A stretch of 37,166 nt of DNA from Devosia equisanguinis. GTDB taxonomy: Bacteria; Pseudomonadota; Alphaproteobacteria; Rhizobiales; Hyphomicrobiaceae. The translations under genes were made by a program, and so were the position numbers. Location of the stretch: positions 1 to 37,166 of the forward strand of contig CAMDBL010000014.1 in the NCBI GenBank assembly GCA_945889015.1, written 5' to 3'. Below, one piece after another: positions 246-23,725 of this stretch (its first letter is position 1; each line of letters starts with the position of its first letter). The notes under the pieces are model-generated. The model saw nothing but the letters and a program-made list of their open reading frames with translations. It did not search any database and was not told the origin of the DNA.

Positions 246-1307
246 ATGGCGACAGCGAAAACTCTCTCGAGGCGCGAAGGGGAAATGGGCATCGGCAGCA
301 AGAGAGAAATTCGCGAGGCGCCTCGCAGGGACGTCCAGGCCGTCGAGATCGGCCTAAATGCGGCGATCGTGGCCGTGCGGCAGGACGAGCCGGTCGTGCT
401 CACCGTCCGCACCGAATCCGAAAGGGGTGTCGCCACCGACGGGTTGCCATTCGGTCCGTTCTCTCCCCAACAGCATCGTACTCTGGATGGCGGCTTGCGC
501 AGCTGGGTGCAGGAGCAGACCGGGCTCGACCTCGGTTACGTCGAGCAGCTCTACACCTTCGGCGATCGCGGACGCCACGCTCAACCCGGCGACATCGGTC
601 CGCATGTCGTCTCGATCGGTTATCTAGCACTGACGCAACCCGTCGAGATCGACGATGCCAGCCGCGGCAGCTGGCGGAGTTGGTACAATTATTTTCCCTG
701 GGAGGATTGGCGCAAGGGCCGGCCCGAGATGCTCGAGGCCGAGATCGTGCCAAAGCTGAAGGAGTGGGCCGAGCGGCCGAGCCACACGCCCCAGCCAGCC
801 CGCCCTCTGGAGCGGCAGGACCGCATCCGCATCTGCTTTGGCGCGGACGGGGCGGCATGGGACGAGGAAAAGGTGCTGGAGCGCTTCGAGTTGCTCTACG
901 AAGCCGGCCTCGTCGACGAGGCGCGTCGCGACGGCCGCGAATCCGCACTGGCCTGGGGACCGCTTCCACGTCTGGGCGGTGCGATGCGCTTCGACCATCG
1001 CCGCGTGCTGGCGACAGCCATAGGCCGCGTCCGCGCCAAGATCAAGTATCGCCCGGTGATCTTCGAGCTCATGCCGGACGAGTTCACGCTGTTCGAGTTG
1101 CAGAAGACGGTGGAGGCCATTCTGGGACCGCACCTGCACAAGCAGAATTTCCGCCGCCTGGTCGAAAGCGCCGGGCTGGTCGAGCCGACCGGCGAGGTGC
1201 GCACCCGCACCGGCGGGCGCCCCGCCAAACTGTTCCGCTTCCGTCGCGAAGTACTGCTGGAGCGGCCCGCGCCCGGCGTTCGCGTCAAGCCCGGCCGCGT
1301 CGTCTGA
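246..1307 (+). CDS. nadQ: NadQ-type transcriptional regulator of NAD synthesis (degenerate NUDIX domain plus winged helix)
   Basis: A 353-residue protein with an N-terminal NUDIX-like fold (about residues 35-180) and a C-terminal winged-helix DNA-binding domain (about 265-335, ending in the RTRTGGRPAKLFRF segment). The NUDIX box around residues 80-110 is degenerate (RSWVQEQTG in place of the catalytic REUXEE pattern), as expected for a regulator that senses a nucleotide rather than hydrolysing it. This architecture is that of the alphaproteobacterial NAD regulators related to NrtR. The gene directly precedes nadABC on the same strand, which fits a local repressor. An in-frame ATG at 285 is an alternative start. 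The function as nad regulator is inferred from domains plus context. Confidence 0.8.
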   Translation: MATAKTLSRREGEMGIGSKREIREAPRRDVQAVEIGLNAAIVAVRQDEPVVLTVRTESERGVATDGLPFGPFSPQQHRTLDGGLRSWVQEQTGLDLGYVEQLYTFGDRGRHAQPGDIGPHVVSIGYLALTQPVEIDDASRGSWRSWYNYFPWEDWRKGRPEMLEAEIVPKLKEWAERPSHTPQPARPLERQDRIRICFGADGAAWDEEKVLERFELLYEAGLVDEARRDGRESALAWGPLPRLGGAMRFDHRRVLATAIGRVRAKIKYRPVIFELMPDEFTLFELQKTVEAILGPHLHKQNFRRLVESAGLVEPTGEVRTRTGGRPAKLFRFRREVLLERPAPGVRVKPGRVV

Positions 1308-1313
1308 CACGGC

Positions 1314-1365
1314 TTTGCCCGATAACCCGTCAGCGCATAGCTGCGCTGACGCGGGATCGGGCAAA
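1314..1365. repeat. Long imperfect palindrome after nadQ
   Basis: Outer arms TTTGCCCGAT (1314-1323) and ATCGGGCAAA (1356-1365) are perfect complements. The inner arms CGTCAGCGCA and TGCGCTGACG are a perfect 10-bp pair around the loop TAGC (1338-1341). It starts 7 bp after the nadQ stop. No T-run follows on the plus strand, so it is a poor intrinsic terminator; it may be a REP-like element or a transcript-stabilising hairpin. Confidence 0.7.
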
Positions 1366-1426
1366 ATCCCACTCGTAGGGTCTAGTAAAAGCAAAATTGC
1401 GAACCTATTATTACAACAGCCCATCA

Positions 1427-1443
1427 ATGCTCGTCCAGAGCAT
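1427..1443. promoter_or_regulatory. Candidate NadQ operator, copy 1
   Basis: A perfect palindrome ATGCTC-N5-GAGCAT lies about 110 bp upstream of the nadA start. A near copy lies 64 bp downstream, which is close to six helical turns. The position between the regulator gene and nadA suggests it is the regulator's binding site. This is inference from symmetry and position. Confidence 0.5.
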
Positions 1444-1490
1444 AATGAGAACCTAACCGGCAGGACAGCCGGATTTCTCAGGGTCGCCAT

Positions 1491-1507
1491 ATGCTCATGT
1501 CGAGTAA
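1491..1507. promoter_or_regulatory. Candidate NadQ operator, copy 2
   Basis: ATGCTC-N5-GAGTAA repeats the left half-site and the 5-bp spacing of the upstream palindrome, with two mismatches in the right half. It sits 46 bp ahead of the chosen nadA start codon, a position suited to blocking transcription. Confidence 0.45.
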
Positions 1508-1552
1508 ATGGTGAAGTCCCGACGACCACGAGAGGGAACGAGGAGACCGGCG

Positions 1553-2626
1553 ATGGCCACGGTTCACATCAATCATGCGGCGCGCGCGACCGAGCGGCGC
1601 CCCGGTAGCCCACCTGCGGGCCCGCAGCGGCCCGCGCTCGAGTTCACTCCCGCCCTCGCCCGCGAGATGGAGCCGCTCTACCAGCGCGTGAAGCATGTCG
1701 TCACGCCGATGGAGTGGGTGCAGTACGCGCCGCTGGTCAAGGAGATCAACGAGCTGAAGGCGCAGCGCAACGCGGTGATCCTGGCGCACAACTACATGAC
1801 GCCCGAGATCTTCCATTGCGTTGGCGACTTCCGTGGCGACAGCCTGCAGCTCGCCCGCGAGGCCGCGCGCGTGGAAGCGGACGTCATCGTCCAGGCCGGC
1901 GTGCACTTCATGGCCGAGACCTCGAAGCTGATGAACCCGGACAAGACCGTTTTGATCCCGGATCTCGAGGCCGGCTGCTCGCTCGCCTCCTCGATCACGG
2001 GTGCGGACGTGCGGATGTTGCGCGAGGCCTATCCTGGCGTGCCGATCGTCACCTACGTCAACACGTCCGCCGACGTGAAGGCGGAAAGCGACATCTGCTG
2101 CACCTCCTCCAACGCCGTGAAGGTAGTGGAGAGCCTCGGCGTGCCGCGCGTGCTGCTGATCCCGGACGAGTTCCTGGCGAAGTGGGTGGCGACACAGACC
2201 AAGGTCGAGATCATCGCCTGGAAGGGCCACTGCGAGGTGCACGAGCGCTTCACGCCCGAGGAACTGCTGGCGTTCCGCGCCGCCGATCCCGGCACCAAGA
2301 TCATCGCGCATCCGGAGTGCCCGCCCGAGGTGATCGAAGTCGCCGACTTCACCGGCTCGACCGCGGCCATGATCGACTGGGTCAAGGGCAAGCGGCCGCG
2401 CAAGGTGCTGCTGGTGACGGAGTGCTCGATGTCATCGAACGTGGCGGCCGAGGTTCCCGACGTGGAGTTCGTGCGGCCGTGCAACCTTTGTCCGCACATG
2501 AAGCGGATCAGCCTCGAGAAGATCCGCGACAGCCTGCTCTACCTGCAGCACGAGGTGACAGTCGATCCGATGATCGCCGAGCGGGCGCGCCGCGCCGTCG
2601 AGCGGATGGTCAACCTGACGAACTGA
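1553..2626 (+). CDS. nadA: Quinolinate synthase NadA
   Basis: NadA condenses iminoaspartate with dihydroxyacetone phosphate to quinolinate in cytoplasmic de novo NAD synthesis, using an oxygen-sensitive [4Fe-4S] cluster. The 357-residue product has the family's signature segments: [11 protein letters not shown] (about 76-86), [10 protein letters not shown] (Cys142), HPEC (Cys256), ECSMSSN (Cys291) and [11 protein letters not shown] (Cys310 and Cys313). Three of these cysteines should hold the cluster. The ATG at 1553 is preferred over the in-frame ATG at 1508 because GAGGAG stands just upstream of it, and because the earlier start would begin on the second candidate operator. First gene of a nadABC row. 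Confidence 0.93.
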
Positions 2627-19284: not shown

Positions 19285-19866
19285 ATGGCGCACGAGATCC
19301 GCATGGATGCTTTCGACATCAAGTTGCTGGCCGCGCTGCAGCGGGACGGACGCCTCACCAACTTCGAGTTGGCGGAATGCGTCGGCCTCTCCGCCTCGCA
19401 GTGCTCGCGGCGCAGGGTAGCGCTCGAGGAAGCCGGCGTCATCGAAAGCTATCGAGCGCATCTGTCGGCGGAAGCGCTGGGGCTTGGCGTCGCCGTGTTC
19501 GTGCAGGTGACGCTCGCCACCCACTCGCCCGACAACTCCAAACGCTTCAAATCCTTGATCGAGGGTCTGGACGAGGTGCAGGAAGCCTATGCACTGACCG
19601 GCGAAGCCGACTATCTGGTCAAGCTTGTTGCGGCGGACCTTAAGGCATTGTCGCGCATCCTCAACGAGATCTTCTTGCCGCACGAGAGCGTCGCTCACGT
19701 CAGATCTTCCGTCGTCCTCGACCGTCTGAAAGAGACGTCGCGGCTGCCGCTGTCGCACCTCTCAGCACCCGGAGCAGAGAAGCCGGAGCACGTTTCGGGG
19801 AAAACCAGAACCACGCGGCACGGGCGCGGCCGTCGCTCCGATCAGACGACTGATCGAAGAAAATAG
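19285..19866 (+). CDS. Lrp/AsnC-family transcriptional regulator
   Basis: About 193 residues: an N-terminal helix-turn-helix (MDAFDIKLLAALQRDGRLTN, then LAECVGLSASQCSRRRVALEEAGVI) and a C-terminal effector domain (RAM/SAM fold) with the EAYALTGEADYLVKLVAADL segment typical of amino-acid-sensing Lrp/AsnC proteins. The last ~35 residues are a basic, poorly ordered tail. It is divergent from hpd-hmgA, so it likely senses an aromatic amino acid or a pathway product and controls that operon. ATGs at 19285 and 19303 are both possible starts; neither has a strong ribosome binding site. Confidence 0.85.
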   Translation: MAHEIRMDAFDIKLLAALQRDGRLTNFELAECVGLSASQCSRRRVALEEAGVIESYRAHLSAEALGLGVAVFVQVTLATHSPDNSKRFKSLIEGLDEVQEAYALTGEADYLVKLVAADLKALSRILNEIFLPHESVAHVRSSVVLDRLKETSRLPLSHLSAPGAEKPEHVSGKTRTTRHGRGRRSDQTTDRRK

Positions 19867-20013
19867 CCGGGATCCTAGCCTCACGCCCAAACCCCGCCAC
19901 AATCATCAGTCATCAGCCGGCCTCCCTTACGGACGCCATGGGTGCCGGCTCTTCGAGACCGGCCTGGCGCGCGCCGCTCTGCGGAGTGCGTGTTCCGCTT
20001 CCATCGGGGATCC

Positions 20014-20085
20014 GAGGCCGTAGCTCAGTGGTAGAGCATCCGGGCAACCGGAAGGTCTGGGGTTCGATTCCCCGGGGCTTCTCCA
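20014..20085 (+). ncRNA. tRNA-like RNA with GCAA tetraloop instead of an anticodon loop
   Basis: The sequence folds as a tRNA: acceptor GAGGCCG/GGGCTTC with six of seven pairs, D-stem GCTC/GAGC with the GG-bearing loop AGTGGTA, T-arm with loop TTCGATT, a 5-nt variable loop, and an encoded CCA end (20083-20085). The anticodon stem TCCGG (20039-20043) / CCGGA (20048-20052) is perfect but closes on only four bases, GCAA (20044-20047), a GNRA tetraloop. There is no anticodon, so it cannot decode. It may be a tRNA mimic or an inactivated tRNA. Confidence 0.7.
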
Positions 20086-20158
20086 AGCGACTAGCTCAGT
20101 GGTTAGAGCACCTGACTGTTAATCAGGCTGTCGCGGGTTCGATTCCCGCTTCGCACCC
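20086..20158 (+). tRNA. tRNA-Asn(GTT)-like gene with defective acceptor stem
   Basis: D-arm GCTC-AGTGGTTA-GAGC, anticodon stem CCTGA/TCAGG around loop CTGTTAA (anticodon GTT at 20118-20120), variable CTGTC and T-arm GCGGG-TTCGATT-CCCGC are all canonical. The acceptor ends pair only at the four central positions (GCGA/TCGC); both outer pairs and the innermost one mismatch, and no CCA is encoded. It begins directly at the CCA of the preceding tRNA-like gene. It may be a degenerate tRNA or a second tRNA-shaped functional RNA; a normal tRNA-Asn presumably exists elsewhere. Confidence 0.6.
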
Positions 20159-20472
20159 TCCGTAAAAGGAGGACTACACACGGGAAGCCGGCTGCTTCTC
20201 CAGTCTTTGCGGCCAATCTCCGAGCTTCGGCGAGGAGTGAGACTGCAAGGCCAAGCGTCGAGACGCTTCGCGCTCCCGCGGATACCGTCCGGCGGCAACG
20301 CCCGAGCCCGGGCTCCGGCGCGCTGCACTCTGCGGAGGCGGCGCGGACGCAACCCAGGGCACACGGCCGCGCCACCGGGCTCAAGCGGGAGCCCGCGCAC
20401 TCGCCGTGGGGCGGCGGCCGGCGACCTGAGCGGTCGATGTTTTTTGCAAGAAGAAGAAAAGGAGATTTCCAG
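20159..20472 (+). other. Hairpin-rich leader between tRNA-like genes and the slipin gene
   Basis: No protein is recognised in these 314 bp. Several perfect hairpins follow one another: GAAGC/GCTTC near 20188, AAGCGTC-GA-GACGCTT (20253-20268), the palindrome GAGCCCGGGCTC near 20310, and CGGGCTC/GAGCCCG near 20380-20400. CCTCC/GGAGG straddles the 3' side of the second tRNA-like gene (about 20157-20171). It ends in the AAGGAG ribosome binding site of the slipin gene. It could be a long 5' leader or a further non-coding RNA. Confidence 0.45.
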
Positions 20473-21636
20473 ATGAACCGGGCCGGCTTTCTGAATCGCG
20501 TCGTGACCGTCAAAGACGACGAGCGCGCGTTCCTCATCCGCGACGGCCGGTTCGAGCGCCTGCTCGGGCCCGGCCGCCACACGCTGTTCGACCCCTTCGG
20601 CCATTGCAGCGCCGAGGTGGTGAAGATCGTGCGCGCCGAGCTGCCGGCCGACCGGGCGCTGTTGATGCAGCGCACGCACCCGGCGGTGGCGGACGAGCAT
20701 GTCGAGATCGTCCAGGCAGGCCCGACGGAAGTGGCGATCATCTCATTCGACGGCGAGCCCAAGCACCTCGTCATGCCCAACACCACGCGCGCGTTCTGGA
20801 CGTCGGTCACGTCGGTGGAGGTCGAGCGCATCGACACCGCCGCCGACATCCGCGTCGCCAAGCGTCACCTCGACAGGATCGACCTCGCCCGCAATACGGT
20901 CGTGGTGCAGGCCGTGGTCGAGGCGCACGAGGCGGGTCTTCTGATCGTCGATGGTGAGCTGACCGAGCGGCTGAAGCCCGGGCGACATGCGTTCTGGCAG
21001 GTCGGTCGCACGGTCCGTATCCAGAAGGTCGACCTGCGTCCGACGCCGCTCGAGGTGACGGCGCAGGAGATCCTGACCAAGGACCGCGTCGGAATCCGCG
21101 TGACGCTGACCGCCTTCTACCGGGTCGTCGATCCGGAGAAGGCGGCAATGACCACGGGCGATCTCGCCAACACGCTGTACCGGCTCGTGCAGTTCGCGAT
21201 CCGGGAGGCGGTGGCGACGCGCACACTCGACGAAATCCTCGCCGCGCGCGACGAGATCGACGGGCAGGTGCGCGGCTACGTGGCGGAGCGGGCGAAGGCG
21301 CTCGGTGCGGAGATCGGCGAGATCGGCGTCAAGGACGTCATCCTGCCGGGCGACGTACGCGAGCTCCTGAACAAGGTCGTGGAGGCGGAGCGGGTGGCGA
21401 AGGCCAATCTGATCCGCCGCCAGGAGGAGACGGCGGCGACGCGGTCCCTGCTGAACACGGCGCGGCTGATGGAGGACAACCCGATCCTCGTCCGCCTGAA
21501 GGAGCTCGAGGCGCTGGAGAAGCTCGTCGAGAAGGTCGGCCGCATCGATCTGCACACTGGCCAAGGCGCCGGTGGCTTCGACGCGCTGCTGACCAACCTG
21601 TACCGGCTGCGCGGGGAGGGCGGAGAGACGAAGTGA
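20473..21636 (+). CDS. Slipin (SPFH/band-7 domain) protein
   Basis: A 387-residue protein with an SPFH domain (about 150-325): VDLRPTPLEVTAQEILTKD, VTLTAFYRVVDPEKA, FAIREAVATRTLDEILAARDEI, then the coiled-coil-like VVEAERVAKANLIRRQEETAATR. Ahead of it stands a duplicated RDGRFERLLGPGRH / VDGELTERLKPGRH motif at residues 23-36 and 159-172. No membrane helix is seen at the N-terminus, unlike stomatin. From memory, similar long slipins are often encoded beside RtcB RNA-ligase loci; no rtcB lies in this window. AAGGAG precedes the ATG at 20473. A terminator hairpin follows. Confidence 0.85.
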   Translation: MNRAGFLNRVVTVKDDERAFLIRDGRFERLLGPGRHTLFDPFGHCSAEVVKIVRAELPADRALLMQRTHPAVADEHVEIVQAGPTEVAIISFDGEPKHLVMPNTTRAFWTSVTSVEVERIDTAADIRVAKRHLDRIDLARNTVVVQAVVEAHEAGLLIVDGELTERLKPGRHAFWQVGRTVRIQKVDLRPTPLEVTAQEILTKDRVGIRVTLTAFYRVVDPEKAAMTTGDLANTLYRLVQFAIREAVATRTLDEILAARDEIDGQVRGYVAERAKALGAEIGEIGVKDVILPGDVRELLNKVVEAERVAKANLIRRQEETAATRSLLNTARLMEDNPILVRLKELEALEKLVEKVGRIDLHTGQGAGGFDALLTNLYRLRGEGGETK

Positions 21637-22301: not shown

Positions 22302-23507
22302 CTACCCTCTTGCCGCCATCAGCCCGCGTTCCACGTCCTCGGCGATGTCCTCGTAGGCTTCCAGGCCCACCGACAGCCGGATCATGCCGTCGGAGATGCC
22401 GAGTTCGGCGCGGGCCTCGGACGTGAGGCGCTGGTGCGTCGTCGTGGCGGGATGGGTGACGAGACTCTTGGTGTCGCCGAGGTTGTTGGAGATCTTGGCT
22501 AGGCGTAGCGCGTTCAGGAAGCGGAACGCCGCCGCCTTGTCGCCGTCGATGACGAACGTCACGACCTGCCCGCCGCCGCTCATCTGTCTCTTGATGAGGG
22601 CGGCCTGGGGATGATCGGCGCGACCGCAGTACATGACCTTCGCCATGCCCTTGAGCTTCGCCATGTGGTCCGCGAGGCGTGCCGCCGTCTCGCACTGCGC
22701 CTTGACGCGGATCGGCAGCGTCTCGAGGCTCTTCAGCATCACCCAGGCGTTGAACGGCGACAGCGACGGCCCGGTCTGGCGGACGAAGTCGTGCACGTAC
22801 TTCTTGATGTGGTCCTTGCTCGCCAGCACCACGCCACCGAGGCAGCGGCCCTGGCCGTCGATATGCTTGGTCGCCGAGTACACCACCACGTCGGCGCCGT
22901 GCTGGAGGGGGCGCTGCAGCATCGGGGTCGCGAACACGTTGTCGACGATCGTCACCGCGCCGATGCGCTTGGCGATCTTCGACACGCCGGCGATGTCGAC
23001 GATGTCGAGTGTCGGATTGGCCGGCGTCTCGAAGAAGAAGGCCTTGGTGTTCGGCTTGACCGCACTCTCCCACTGGTTGAGATCGCGGCCGTCGACGAGC
23101 GTGAACTGAATGCCGAAGCGAGGGCAGAGCACCTCGACGATATAGCGGCACGATCCGAACATCGCCTTCGCCGCGATGATATGATCGCCCGCGCTCAAAC
23201 ACGAAAGGATCGAAGCCGTCACCGCCGCCATGCCGGTCGCGGTGGCGCGCGAGTCCTCGGCGCCCTCGAGCAGCCTGATCCGCTCCTCGAACATCGCGAC
23301 GGTCGGATTGCCGAAGCGCGAATACTGGAAGCCCGGATCGAGATTGAGGAAGCGCGCCTCGGCCTGCTCGGCGCTGTTGTAGACGTAGCCCTGCGTGAGG
23401 TACAACGCCTCGGAGGTCTCGCCGAACTGTGAGCGCAGCGTGCCACCGTGCACGAGTTGCGTCTCGGGACGCCAGTTGATGGCTTCGTCTTTCGGATCGG
23501 TCGACAT
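22302..23507 (-). CDS. metZ: O-succinylhomoserine sulfhydrylase MetZ
   Basis: A PLP enzyme that joins sulfide to O-succinylhomoserine to give homocysteine for methionine synthesis. The 401-residue protein has the Cys/Met-metabolism PLP-family parts: FQYSRFGNPT (57-70), ATATGMAAVTASILSCL, FFFETPANPTLDI, VDNVFATP and the PLP-lysine segment VVYSATKHIDGQGR (Lys214). The pattern fits MetZ better than cystathionine lyases, mainly from the QTGPSLSPFNAWVMLKSLETL region and the riboswitch context. A SAM-II riboswitch lies 78 nt upstream, so SAM should lower its expression. Confidence 0.92.
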   Translation of the reverse strand: MSTDPKDEAINWRPETQLVHGGTLRSQFGETSEALYLTQGYVYNSAEQAEARFLNLDPGFQYSRFGNPTVAMFEERIRLLEGAEDSRATATGMAAVTASILSCLSAGDHIIAAKAMFGSCRYIVEVLCPRFGIQFTLVDGRDLNQWESAVKPNTKAFFFETPANPTLDIVDIAGVSKIAKRIGAVTIVDNVFATPMLQRPLQHGADVVVYSATKHIDGQGRCLGGVVLASKDHIKKYVHDFVRQTGPSLSPFNAWVMLKSLETLPIRVKAQCETAARLADHMAKLKGMAKVMYCGRADHPQAALIKRQMSGGGQVVTFVIDGDKAAAFRFLNALRLAKISNNLGDTKSLVTHPATTTHQRLTSEARAELGISDGMIRLSVGLEAYEDIAEDVERGLMAARG

Positions 23508-23584
23508 GGCGCGCGGACTCCCTCGTAGGGGCCGACTTTGCCGCTGACGAAAACCGGGCGCCTGTATAGACGGGTAACGCGCAC

Positions 23585-23641
23585 GGCCTTTTTAGCGGAG
23601 TTATTTAACGTGGCTGCAAGCCGGCCGGCCAAATCACCACG
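23585..23641 (-). promoter_or_regulatory. SAM-II riboswitch ahead of metZ
   Basis: On the minus strand the segment begins CGTGGTGATTTGG, contains CTTGCAGCCACGTTAAATAA and ends CCGCTAAAAAGGCC. CGTGG and CCACG form the P1 stem. The conserved TGATTT, TTGCA, AAAT and GCTAAAAAGG blocks of SAM-II are in the right order for its pseudoknot. SAM binding should reduce metZ expression. The ~78-nt distance from its 3' end to the start codon is longer than the usual near-RBS placement. Confidence 0.85.
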
Positions 23642-23725
23642 AGTGCTGGCGCTCTCTTAGGCCCGGCGCGGAACGCGGTCAAGACGAGGCACCGGCAGCG
23701 GTTGAGCGCGGATGCCGTAGCGGGC

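What the first reader, a model, noticed from the sequence alone, without database searches (positions are those of the whole stretch)
20014..20085. A tRNA-shaped RNA whose anticodon loop is a GNRA tetraloop, next to a slipin gene
All tRNA parts are kept: a nearly complete acceptor stem with encoded CCA, D- and T-loops with their conserved bases, and a 5-nt variable loop. The anticodon stem is a perfect 5-bp helix closed by GCAA. Three bases are missing exactly where a decoding loop should be. A decayed tRNA would be expected to lose stems first; here the stems are intact and the loop is replaced by the most stable tetraloop type. That suggests selection for a tRNA mimic, for example a decoy or substrate for RNA-repair or tRNA-cleaving enzymes. 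The following slipin belongs, from memory, to a type often seen near RtcB RNA-ligase loci. The alternative is a dead tRNA.
Basis: partly seen in the sequence, partly recalled or inferred. Interest (0 to 1): 0.82.

Follow-up and report, generated by a model that had tools for sequence, protein, structure and literature searches.

The report
Twin tRNA-like RNA beside slipin gene
The odd tRNA is one of two tRNA-shaped domains in a conserved RNA of about 500 bases in front of a slipin gene in many proteobacteria, in some of them next to an RNA-repair ligase, and its anticodon is free to change while the rest of the tRNA shape is kept.

Summary
In detail: 20014-20085 is a tRNA-like element with a perfect anticodon stem, a 4-base GCAA loop and an encoded CCA. 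It is not a stray tRNA. A second tRNA-like element (20087-20155) abuts it, and both lie inside a structured RNA of about 500 nt (about 19930-20427) before a slipin (SPFH/Band-7) gene. A 110-pair structure covaries in 17 relatives and again in 31 rows, 30 of them new. In 103 genomes of the family 36 have both RNA and slipin, 3 only the RNA, 2 only the slipin, 62 neither. Homologous loci outside the class hold rtcB (11 of 11 fetched, of 14 found). The GCAA form is not conserved: first-element loops run from 4 to 9 nt; the second keeps 7 nt in 67 of 74, with 23 different anticodons. Most likely this is the RNA partner of a slipin-based RNA-repair complex, a kind described by Burroughs and Aravind 2016 (recalled, and seen through a citing paper). 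New here, as far as I could check: twin, non-decoding tRNA domains in a large RNA, the unfixed anticodon, and a copy without rtcB beside it. The bait or scaffold role is inferred.

The parts
19930..20003 (+). 5' domain of the RNA: closing stem around two hairpins, motif CCGGGCTC..GAG.CCCGG-CTGGCGCGnGCCGCnnTGCGG..CGTGTTCCG
   Evidence: R1 model match 19923-20004, E 1.9e-19 (the window's row is in the model); helices 1-4 of A1; weaker matches in 8 of 16 wider loci at E below 0.003
20014..20085 (+). tRNA-like domain 1: full acceptor with G3.U70, U73 and CCA, GCAA loop instead of a decoding loop
   Evidence: ARAGORN, Rfam 46 bits, covariation of helices 5, 7 and 8, homologues
20087..20155 (+). tRNA-like domain 2: 7-nt loop (GTT), mismatched acceptor, no CCA
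   Evidence: Rfam 56.5 bits; helices 10 and 11 covary; perfect anticodon stem in 74 of 74 homologues
20157..20172 (+). short linker hairpin (CCTCC/GGAGG); similar hairpins of other sequence in several relatives
   Evidence: read by eye; no test run
20182..20427 (+). 3' domain of the RNA: long closing helix (GGG.GCCGG.../...GCCGGCGACC) around a branched core with the conserved GGATACC motif
   Evidence: helices 12-19 of A1, transferred to A3 where the outer parts of the core hold less well
20422..20446 (+). terminator-like hairpin plus T-run at the end of the RNA; a T-run at this place was seen in only 3 of the 28 relatives in which the motif was found, so not a general feature
20437..21636 (+). 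slipin (SPFH/Band-7) gene; likely start ATG 20473 behind AAAAGGAGA (by eye); no membrane segment apparent by eye
   Evidence: Pfam Band_7 1.7e-30; AF2 model and fold search

Best explanation
The locus encodes a structured non-coding RNA of about 500 nt whose middle is a pair of tRNA-like domains, followed by its protein partner, a probably soluble SPFH/Band-7 (slipin) protein that should assemble into a ring or dome. Shown here: the RNA fold, its close pairing with the slipin gene, and the presence of rtcB beside homologous loci in other classes. Inferred: RNA and protein form one complex that serves RtcB-type RNA repair. In the window neither domain should translate: domain 1 has an acceptor and CCA but no readable anticodon, domain 2 has an anticodon loop but a mismatched acceptor without CCA. 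They would present tRNA elbows and anticodon arms as scaffold or as sacrificial bait for anticodon-cleaving enzymes, so that cleavage and re-ligation occur on, or are sensed by, this particle. In the window's genome the unit stands apart from rtcB and would act with the unlinked rtcB genes.
For: Structure: 110 pairs, 94.6% of cells paired, covariation score 0.432 against 0.183 in shuffles (0 of 500) and at most 0.103 when slid; transferred unchanged to A3 (31 rows, 30 new): 85.5% paired, 0.325 against 0.144 (0 of 500), slid at most 0.108. Linkage: in 103 family genomes 36 have both, 3 RNA only, 2 slipin only, 62 neither. At least one tRNA-like element parsed upstream of slipin in 97 of 98 loci and a pair in 81 of 98. 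rtcB in 11 of 16 wider loci: 11 of 11 from outside the window's class, 0 of 5 from inside. Slipin fold like stomatin, HflK and prohibitin and like the shoulder of major vault protein. Non-decoding design: CCA in 45 of 76 domain 1 and 6 of 74 domain 2; CCA plus a 7-nt loop with T33 and purine 37 in 1 of 150 elements (L201).
Against: No transcript, binding or repair data. An rtcB-like gene was seen in only 3 of 80 named alphaproteobacterial loci (flanks of at most 2.5 kb, some cut), so joint action with RtcB is by homology. The RNA lies upstream of and co-oriented with slipin, which a cis-acting leader would also do. The split of roles is not strict: 9 of 76 domain 1 copies have CCA and a 7-nt loop, 4 of 74 domain 2 copies too. 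In G025 slipin is broken while both clover leaves remain. Anticodon variability is extreme in Bradyrhizobium (34-36 at the 97th to 100th percentile), but in the window's own family only position 34 stands out (35 and 36 at the 48th and 59th), and the rate in close pairs equals that of the fastest tenth of other sites (0.31 against 0.29), so loss of constraint explains it as well as an arms race. The AF2 model rests on 16 sequences (mean pLDDT 78.8, pTM 0.55).
Confidence: 0.6

Rival explanations
1. The RNA is a cis-acting leader: the tRNA-like domains sense a tRNA-handling state (processing, charging or cleavage) and set slipin expression.
For: Upstream and co-oriented with slipin in the loci read and in the 36 shared genomes; the 3' domain ends close to the slipin ribosome site; a terminator-like hairpin with T-run lies there in the window.
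Against: A T-run there is seen in only 3 of 28 relatives; the spacing between RNA and slipin varies. A 110-pair RNA with two tRNA domains is large for a leader. None of this excludes it.
Confidence: 0.2
2. Domain 1 is a non-decoding tRNA charged with alanine through G3.U70 (as tmRNA is) and serves as an amino-acid donor or charging sensor.
For: Pair 3-70 is G.U in 15 of 17 and A-U in the other 2, while the other six acceptor pairs change on both sides; CCA is encoded in the window; AlaRS does not read the anticodon (recalled).
Against: G3.U70 is not kept in other lineages (A3: GU 21, AU 3, GC 2, UA 1, unpaired 3, gap 1); CCA at the canonical place in only 45 of 76; the base at 73 is U in the window and in many relatives, not A.
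Confidence: 0.1
3. Two decayed tRNA genes that happen to lie before a slipin gene.
For: Mismatched acceptor of domain 2, broken loop of domain 1; in G025 the slipin itself is broken.
Against: Compensatory changes in both elements and in the flanking domains; tRNA-like elements kept beside this slipin across the phylum; co-occurrence with slipin. In two genomes where slipin is missing or a remnant (G463, G467) ARAGORN finds no tRNA-like element either.
Confidence: 0.03
4. Integration-site debris of a mobile element that uses tRNA genes.
For: tRNA genes are common attachment sites (general knowledge).
Against: No integrase family among the 9 window proteins scanned (not the whole window); the unit is conserved and co-inherited. 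No search for flanking repeats was run.
Confidence: 0.02

Closest known systems
SPFH/Band-7 modules with a 'novel tRNA-like molecule' in RtcB RNA-repair systems (Burroughs and Aravind 2016, Nucleic Acids Res 44:8525; not held; wording of the abstract recalled; citing passages seen in PMC13404743)
   Same: SPFH gene, tRNA-like non-coding RNA beside it, rtcB in the same loci in other classes
   Different: Here a tandem pair inside a ~500-nt covarying RNA, with unfixed anticodon and loop, and in the window no rtcB next door. Whether these points are in that paper could not be checked.
YrlA-type Y RNAs of rsr-yrlBA-rtcBA operons (Hughes 2020, PMC7790460, passages seen)
   Same: tRNA-mimicking RNA tied to RNA repair; YrlA fragments were not detected after nuclease activation, and it was proposed there as a possible competitive inhibitor
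   Different: Order here is an ordinary D-anticodon-T clover leaf; two permuted, Y-RNA-like stretches lie in this genome's Ro60-like/rtcB locus instead (by eye; vWA_Ro60)
Eukaryotic vault (major vault protein plus vault RNA)
   Same: Slipin model matches the MVP shoulder region (VIA Z 12.2, 192 residues, 2.7 A; Foldseek E 1.2e-10); protein shell plus small RNA
   Different: MVP is about twice as long; the sequence profile finds stomatins, not MVP; a shared fold shows no function
tmRNA tRNA-like domain
   Same: G3.U70 acceptor, no decoding anticodon
   Different: No tmRNA match in ARAGORN or Rfam at the locus

Membership tests
SPFH/Band-7-linked tRNA-like RNA of RNA-repair systems | tRNA-like RNA encoded beside an SPFH/Band-7 gene | tested here: met
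SPFH/Band-7-linked tRNA-like RNA of RNA-repair systems | rtcB in the same locus | tested here: inconclusive
   The own-genome search puts rtcB on contigs C79 and C132, not in the window; rtcB-like gene in 3 of 80 named alpha loci and in 11 of 16 wider homologous loci. Whether adjacency is defining could not be read in the source paper.
SPFH/Band-7-linked tRNA-like RNA of RNA-repair systems | RtcR/sigma54 control | tested here: inconclusive
   TGGCACG-type sites by eye in L193, L195, L196, L197; in the window no site with fewer than 3 mismatches near the RNA; an rtcR-like reading frame upstream of L193 judged by eye only
Decoding tRNA gene | 7-nt anticodon loop together with paired acceptor and CCA in one molecule | tested here: not met
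   Domain 1 loop 4 nt; domain 2 no CCA, mismatched acceptor
YrlA / bacterial Y RNA | tRNA-like module in permuted order (T arm, acceptor hairpin, D arm), recalled | tested here: not met
   Order is that of an ordinary tRNA
YrlA / bacterial Y RNA | Ro60-like gene in the locus | tested here: inconclusive
   None among the 9 window proteins scanned, not the whole window; a vWA_Ro60 gene lies on contig C79
tmRNA | tmRNA match by ARAGORN or Rfam covariance model | tested here: not met
   No tmRNA
Major vault protein family | SPFH-like shoulder fold | tested here: met
Major vault protein family | MVP repeats in the N-terminal half | tested here: inconclusive
   N-terminal half predicted alone gave mean pLDDT 55.4 and was not searched

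The most novel reading that the evidence does not exclude
A cell-made bait RNA: two clover leaves that cannot translate are displayed on a vault-like slipin shell, one offering an acceptor end and the other an anticodon loop whose three decoding bases are free to drift or are driven to change, so that anticodon-cutting toxins of changing specificity are trapped and the cut RNA is sensed or re-sealed by RtcB.
Probability: 0.25. Interest if true: 0.85.

Novelty: new variant of a known kind. Interest (0 to 1): 0.6.

Why it matters
A tRNA finder reads these elements as tRNA genes with scattered identities (Asn, Pro, His, Glu, Stop and so on), so a conserved RNA that seems to belong to RNA repair can pass as broken or spurious tRNAs. 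The fold, its limits and its slipin partner are now defined well enough for direct tests. The pattern in the Bradyrhizobium clade (kept stem and A37, fast 34-36) gives a clear hypothesis about what anticodon-cleaving enzymes might see.

Tried and rejected
Dead tRNA: rejected by covariation and co-inheritance. Sigma54 promoter in the window: no good site. Sigma70 scan of 19840-20480: none. Selected GNRA tetraloop: rejected as a general feature. General terminator at the RNA end: only 3 of the 28 loci in which the end motif was found. Diversifying selection on the anticodon: not separable from loss of constraint. The N-terminal half of slipin folded alone was too poor to search. The PF05731 search found no TROVE domain in the genome, though a vWA_Ro60 protein is there. 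A search for anticodon-nuclease bait papers held 693 papers, of which the 12 listed were unrelated. No held paper has both 'SPFH' and 'tRNA-like'; in the listings and the passages I opened I saw none that describes this RNA itself. Most papers of subscription journals are not in that library.

Rows dropped and corrections: L100 (cut by its contig end) is shown but left out from then on; L111 was left out. L067 could not be parsed although two clover leaves are visible. One search counted L113 as a pair by a wrong parse; the counts given here are those, without it. A few other rows have uncertain first elements (L153, L195, L198 and L201 pair 4 of 5). For the site-rate run in the window's family 8 of the 36 loci L083-L118 were left out because they were cut, unpaired or oddly parsed; for the Bradyrhizobium clade 6 of 41 were left out as more distant. 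A3 used 30 of the 80 named loci plus the window's row, so that row is in both A1 and A3, and some A3 rows may be close relatives of A1 rows. Of the 14 slipin loci found outside the class wider DNA was fetched for 11.

Full report
What is there. The finding's element at 20014-20085 is real. Directly behind it lies a second tRNA-like element, 20087-20155, with a readable 7-nt loop (GTT) but a mismatched acceptor and no CCA. The next gene, 20437-21636, is an SPFH/Band-7 protein (Pfam E 1.7e-30). Apart from tRNA, only matches below their families' gathering scores, all lying on the two tRNA-like elements, were listed for 19880-20480 in Rfam 15.

Homologues. In 60 relatives the slipin search rang in 23, two of them weakly (G032, G036) and one with a broken gene (G025). 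ARAGORN found at least one tRNA-like element by the slipin in 19 of the 21 loci L050-L070, with 'anticodons' of many kinds, and none in the two weak loci L071 and L072. One of the two misses (L063) is cut by its contig end and still shows part of the second element; in the other (L069) none was recognised. A scan of named genomes kept 80 loci of 147, in Hyphomicrobium, Filomicrobium, Rhodomicrobium, Bradyrhizobium, Methylopila and others. A direct parse found at least one anticodon-plus-T arm set upstream of slipin in 97 of 98 regions (79 named, 3 from the family search, 16 from the phylum search) and a tandem pair in 81. In 398 genomes of the phylum the slipin subfamily is in 23, and ARAGORN finds tRNA-like elements in 16 of the 22 loci other than the window's.

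It is one structured RNA. An alignment of 17 loci (A1) folds into 110 pairs: a 5' domain with two hairpins, two clover leaves, and a 3' domain closed by a long helix. 94.6% of cells pair, 66 pairs show changes on both sides, and the covariation score is 0.432 against 0.183 in shuffles (0 of 500) and at most 0.103 with slid partners. The structure was derived from these rows, so I moved it without change onto another alignment (A3; 30 other loci plus the window's row): 85.5% paired, score 0.325 against 0.144 (0 of 500), slid at most 0.108. Outer helices hold poorly there (helices 1, 16 and 18-21 pair in 35-70% of cells), so those parts of the fold are uncertain outside the family. Related sequences can exceed shuffles without structure, as the tool warns; the slid control is the better one. 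The acceptor of domain 2 was not in the predicted structure. The single-sequence fold of the window is only mildly better than shuffles (z -2.1).

RNA and slipin travel together. A covariance model of the 5' domain (R1) and the slipin profile were run over the same 103 genomes of the family: both in 36, RNA only in 3, slipin only in 2, neither in 62. The exceptions: G017 ends at a contig edge; G467 keeps only a slipin remnant (residues 312-399); G463 has the 5' domain hit but no slipin and no tRNA found; G460 has two tRNA-like elements that R1 missed; G001 is cut before the 5' domain. Against strict coupling, G025 has a broken slipin but both clover leaves. The Fisher P value (8e-22) ignores relatedness. 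R1 also matched, at E below 0.003, 8 of the 16 wider loci and missed the other 8.

Link to RNA repair. Of 14 slipin loci found outside the class, 11 were fetched with more flank, together with 5 from inside it. rtcB was found in 11 of 11 and 0 of 5. By the match positions it lies within about 0.55 kb of slipin in 9 of the 11 (in L199 on the upstream side, with the tRNA-like stretch between), about 0.9 kb in L189, and 2 to 4 kb away in L194. In the 80 named alpha loci (flanks of at most 2.5 kb) an rtcB-like gene was seen in 3 (L128, L131, L135). Sigma54-type sites are visible in L193, L195, L196 and L197 (by eye). PMC13086221 (passages) places the Pseudomonas aeruginosa SPFH protein PaFlo8 in the rtc locus. 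PMC10272220 (passages) lists an rtcB gene and a slipin gene together in a table of genes affected by the regulator TrcR in Anabaena. The window's genome has rtcB on contigs C79 and C132. At C79 it follows a vWA_Ro60 protein and two permuted tRNA-like stretches that look like YrlA Y RNAs (by eye).

Anatomy that speaks to function (non-redundant elements). Domain 1: 72 of 76 copies have a perfect 5-bp anticodon stem, but the loop is 4 nt in 21, 5 in 10, 6 in 23, 7 in 13, 8 in 8 and 9 in 1; GCAA in 3, any GNRA in 8; CCA in 45. Domain 2: 74 of 74 perfect stems, 7-nt loop in 67, CCA in 6; among those 67, T33 in 50 (C in 13), A37 in 56 (G in 8), and 23 different triplets at 34-36 (GTT 18). Position 36 is T or G in 64 of 67, so it is not wholly free. 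Elements with both CCA and a 7-nt loop are 9 of 76 and 4 of 74; with T33 and a purine at 37 as well, 1 of 150 (L201). So a decoding loop and an acceptor end are kept apart, though not by a strict rule of which domain holds which.

Is the anticodon hypervariable? In 35 Bradyrhizobium-clade sequences, positions 34, 35 and 36 are at the 100th, 97th and 99th percentile of site rate over 586 sites (32 is at the 97th too), while 37 is A in 34 of 35. In 17 close pairs, 34-36 differ at 0.31 per site against 0.079 for the sites outside the loop and 0.024 for the stem, but the fastest tenth of other sites, chosen for being fast, reaches 0.29. In the window's own family (29 sequences) only position 34 stands out (97th; 35 and 36 at the 48th and 59th). 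So the anticodon is not conserved as in a decoding tRNA, and in one clade it is among the fastest sites, but an arms race is not shown.

The protein. AF2 on 16 sequences gave mean pLDDT 78.8. Best solved matches are stomatin (E 1.7e-14), with HflK/C, QmcA and prohibitin; major vault protein also scores (E 1.2e-10; VIA Z 12.2 over 192 residues, 2.7 A). Sequence search finds stomatins (5e-25), not MVP, at E up to 0.01. SPFH proteins and MVP form rings, domes or shells (established knowledge), so a ring is expected here.

Reading. The best account is a ribonucleoprotein of RNA repair: SPFH shell plus a tRNA-mimicking RNA. That pairing is not new in kind. I recall from the abstract of Burroughs and Aravind 2016 the phrase on SPFH/Band-7 modules with a novel tRNA-like molecule; [quoted passage not shown] What this work adds, as far as I could check, is the extent and covarying fold of the RNA, its twin design that keeps decoding loop and acceptor end apart, the unfixed anticodon, the near one-to-one co-inheritance with slipin, and a family in which the unit stands apart from rtcB. 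The mechanism (scaffold or bait) remains inference.

Noticed in passing
window 23571-23650 (-): SAM-alpha riboswitch (79.9 bits) upstream of an O-succinylhomoserine sulfhydrylase gene (22302-23507, -); ordinary.
   Followed up: partly
L006 about 1300-1640 (-), own genome C79: Two permuted tRNA-like stretches (T arm, acceptor hairpin, D arm) between a vWA_Ro60 gene and rtcB, probably YrlA-type Y RNAs (by eye); not listed by ARAGORN or the RF00005 search.
   Followed up: partly
L003 about 1501-1523 (-), own genome C252: 23-base exact D-arm copy of the tRNA-like element with no tRNA found around it; possibly a tRNA fragment.
   Followed up: no
window 20014-20085, acceptor: G3.U70, the alanine identity pair (recalled), is kept in 15 of 17 family rows while the other six acceptor pairs covary; less so in wider rows.
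   Followed up: partly
L108, L097, L104: In these loci domain 2 ends in ACCA while domain 1 ends in TCCT or TCCC, and the domain 2 loop is 6 nt or lacks T33: the CCA seems to have changed places, and the loop that goes with it is again non-decoding.
   Followed up: partly
L185 / L201 (G066): Three tRNA-like elements in a row before slipin and rtcB instead of two; the third is the one element with CCA, a 7-nt loop, T33 and purine 37.
   Followed up: no
Bradyrhizobium loci, for example L122 upstream of the RNA: A -10-like TATTAG followed by a GC-rich stretch shortly before the 5' domain, similar in several loci (by eye); the window has no clear counterpart.
   Followed up: no
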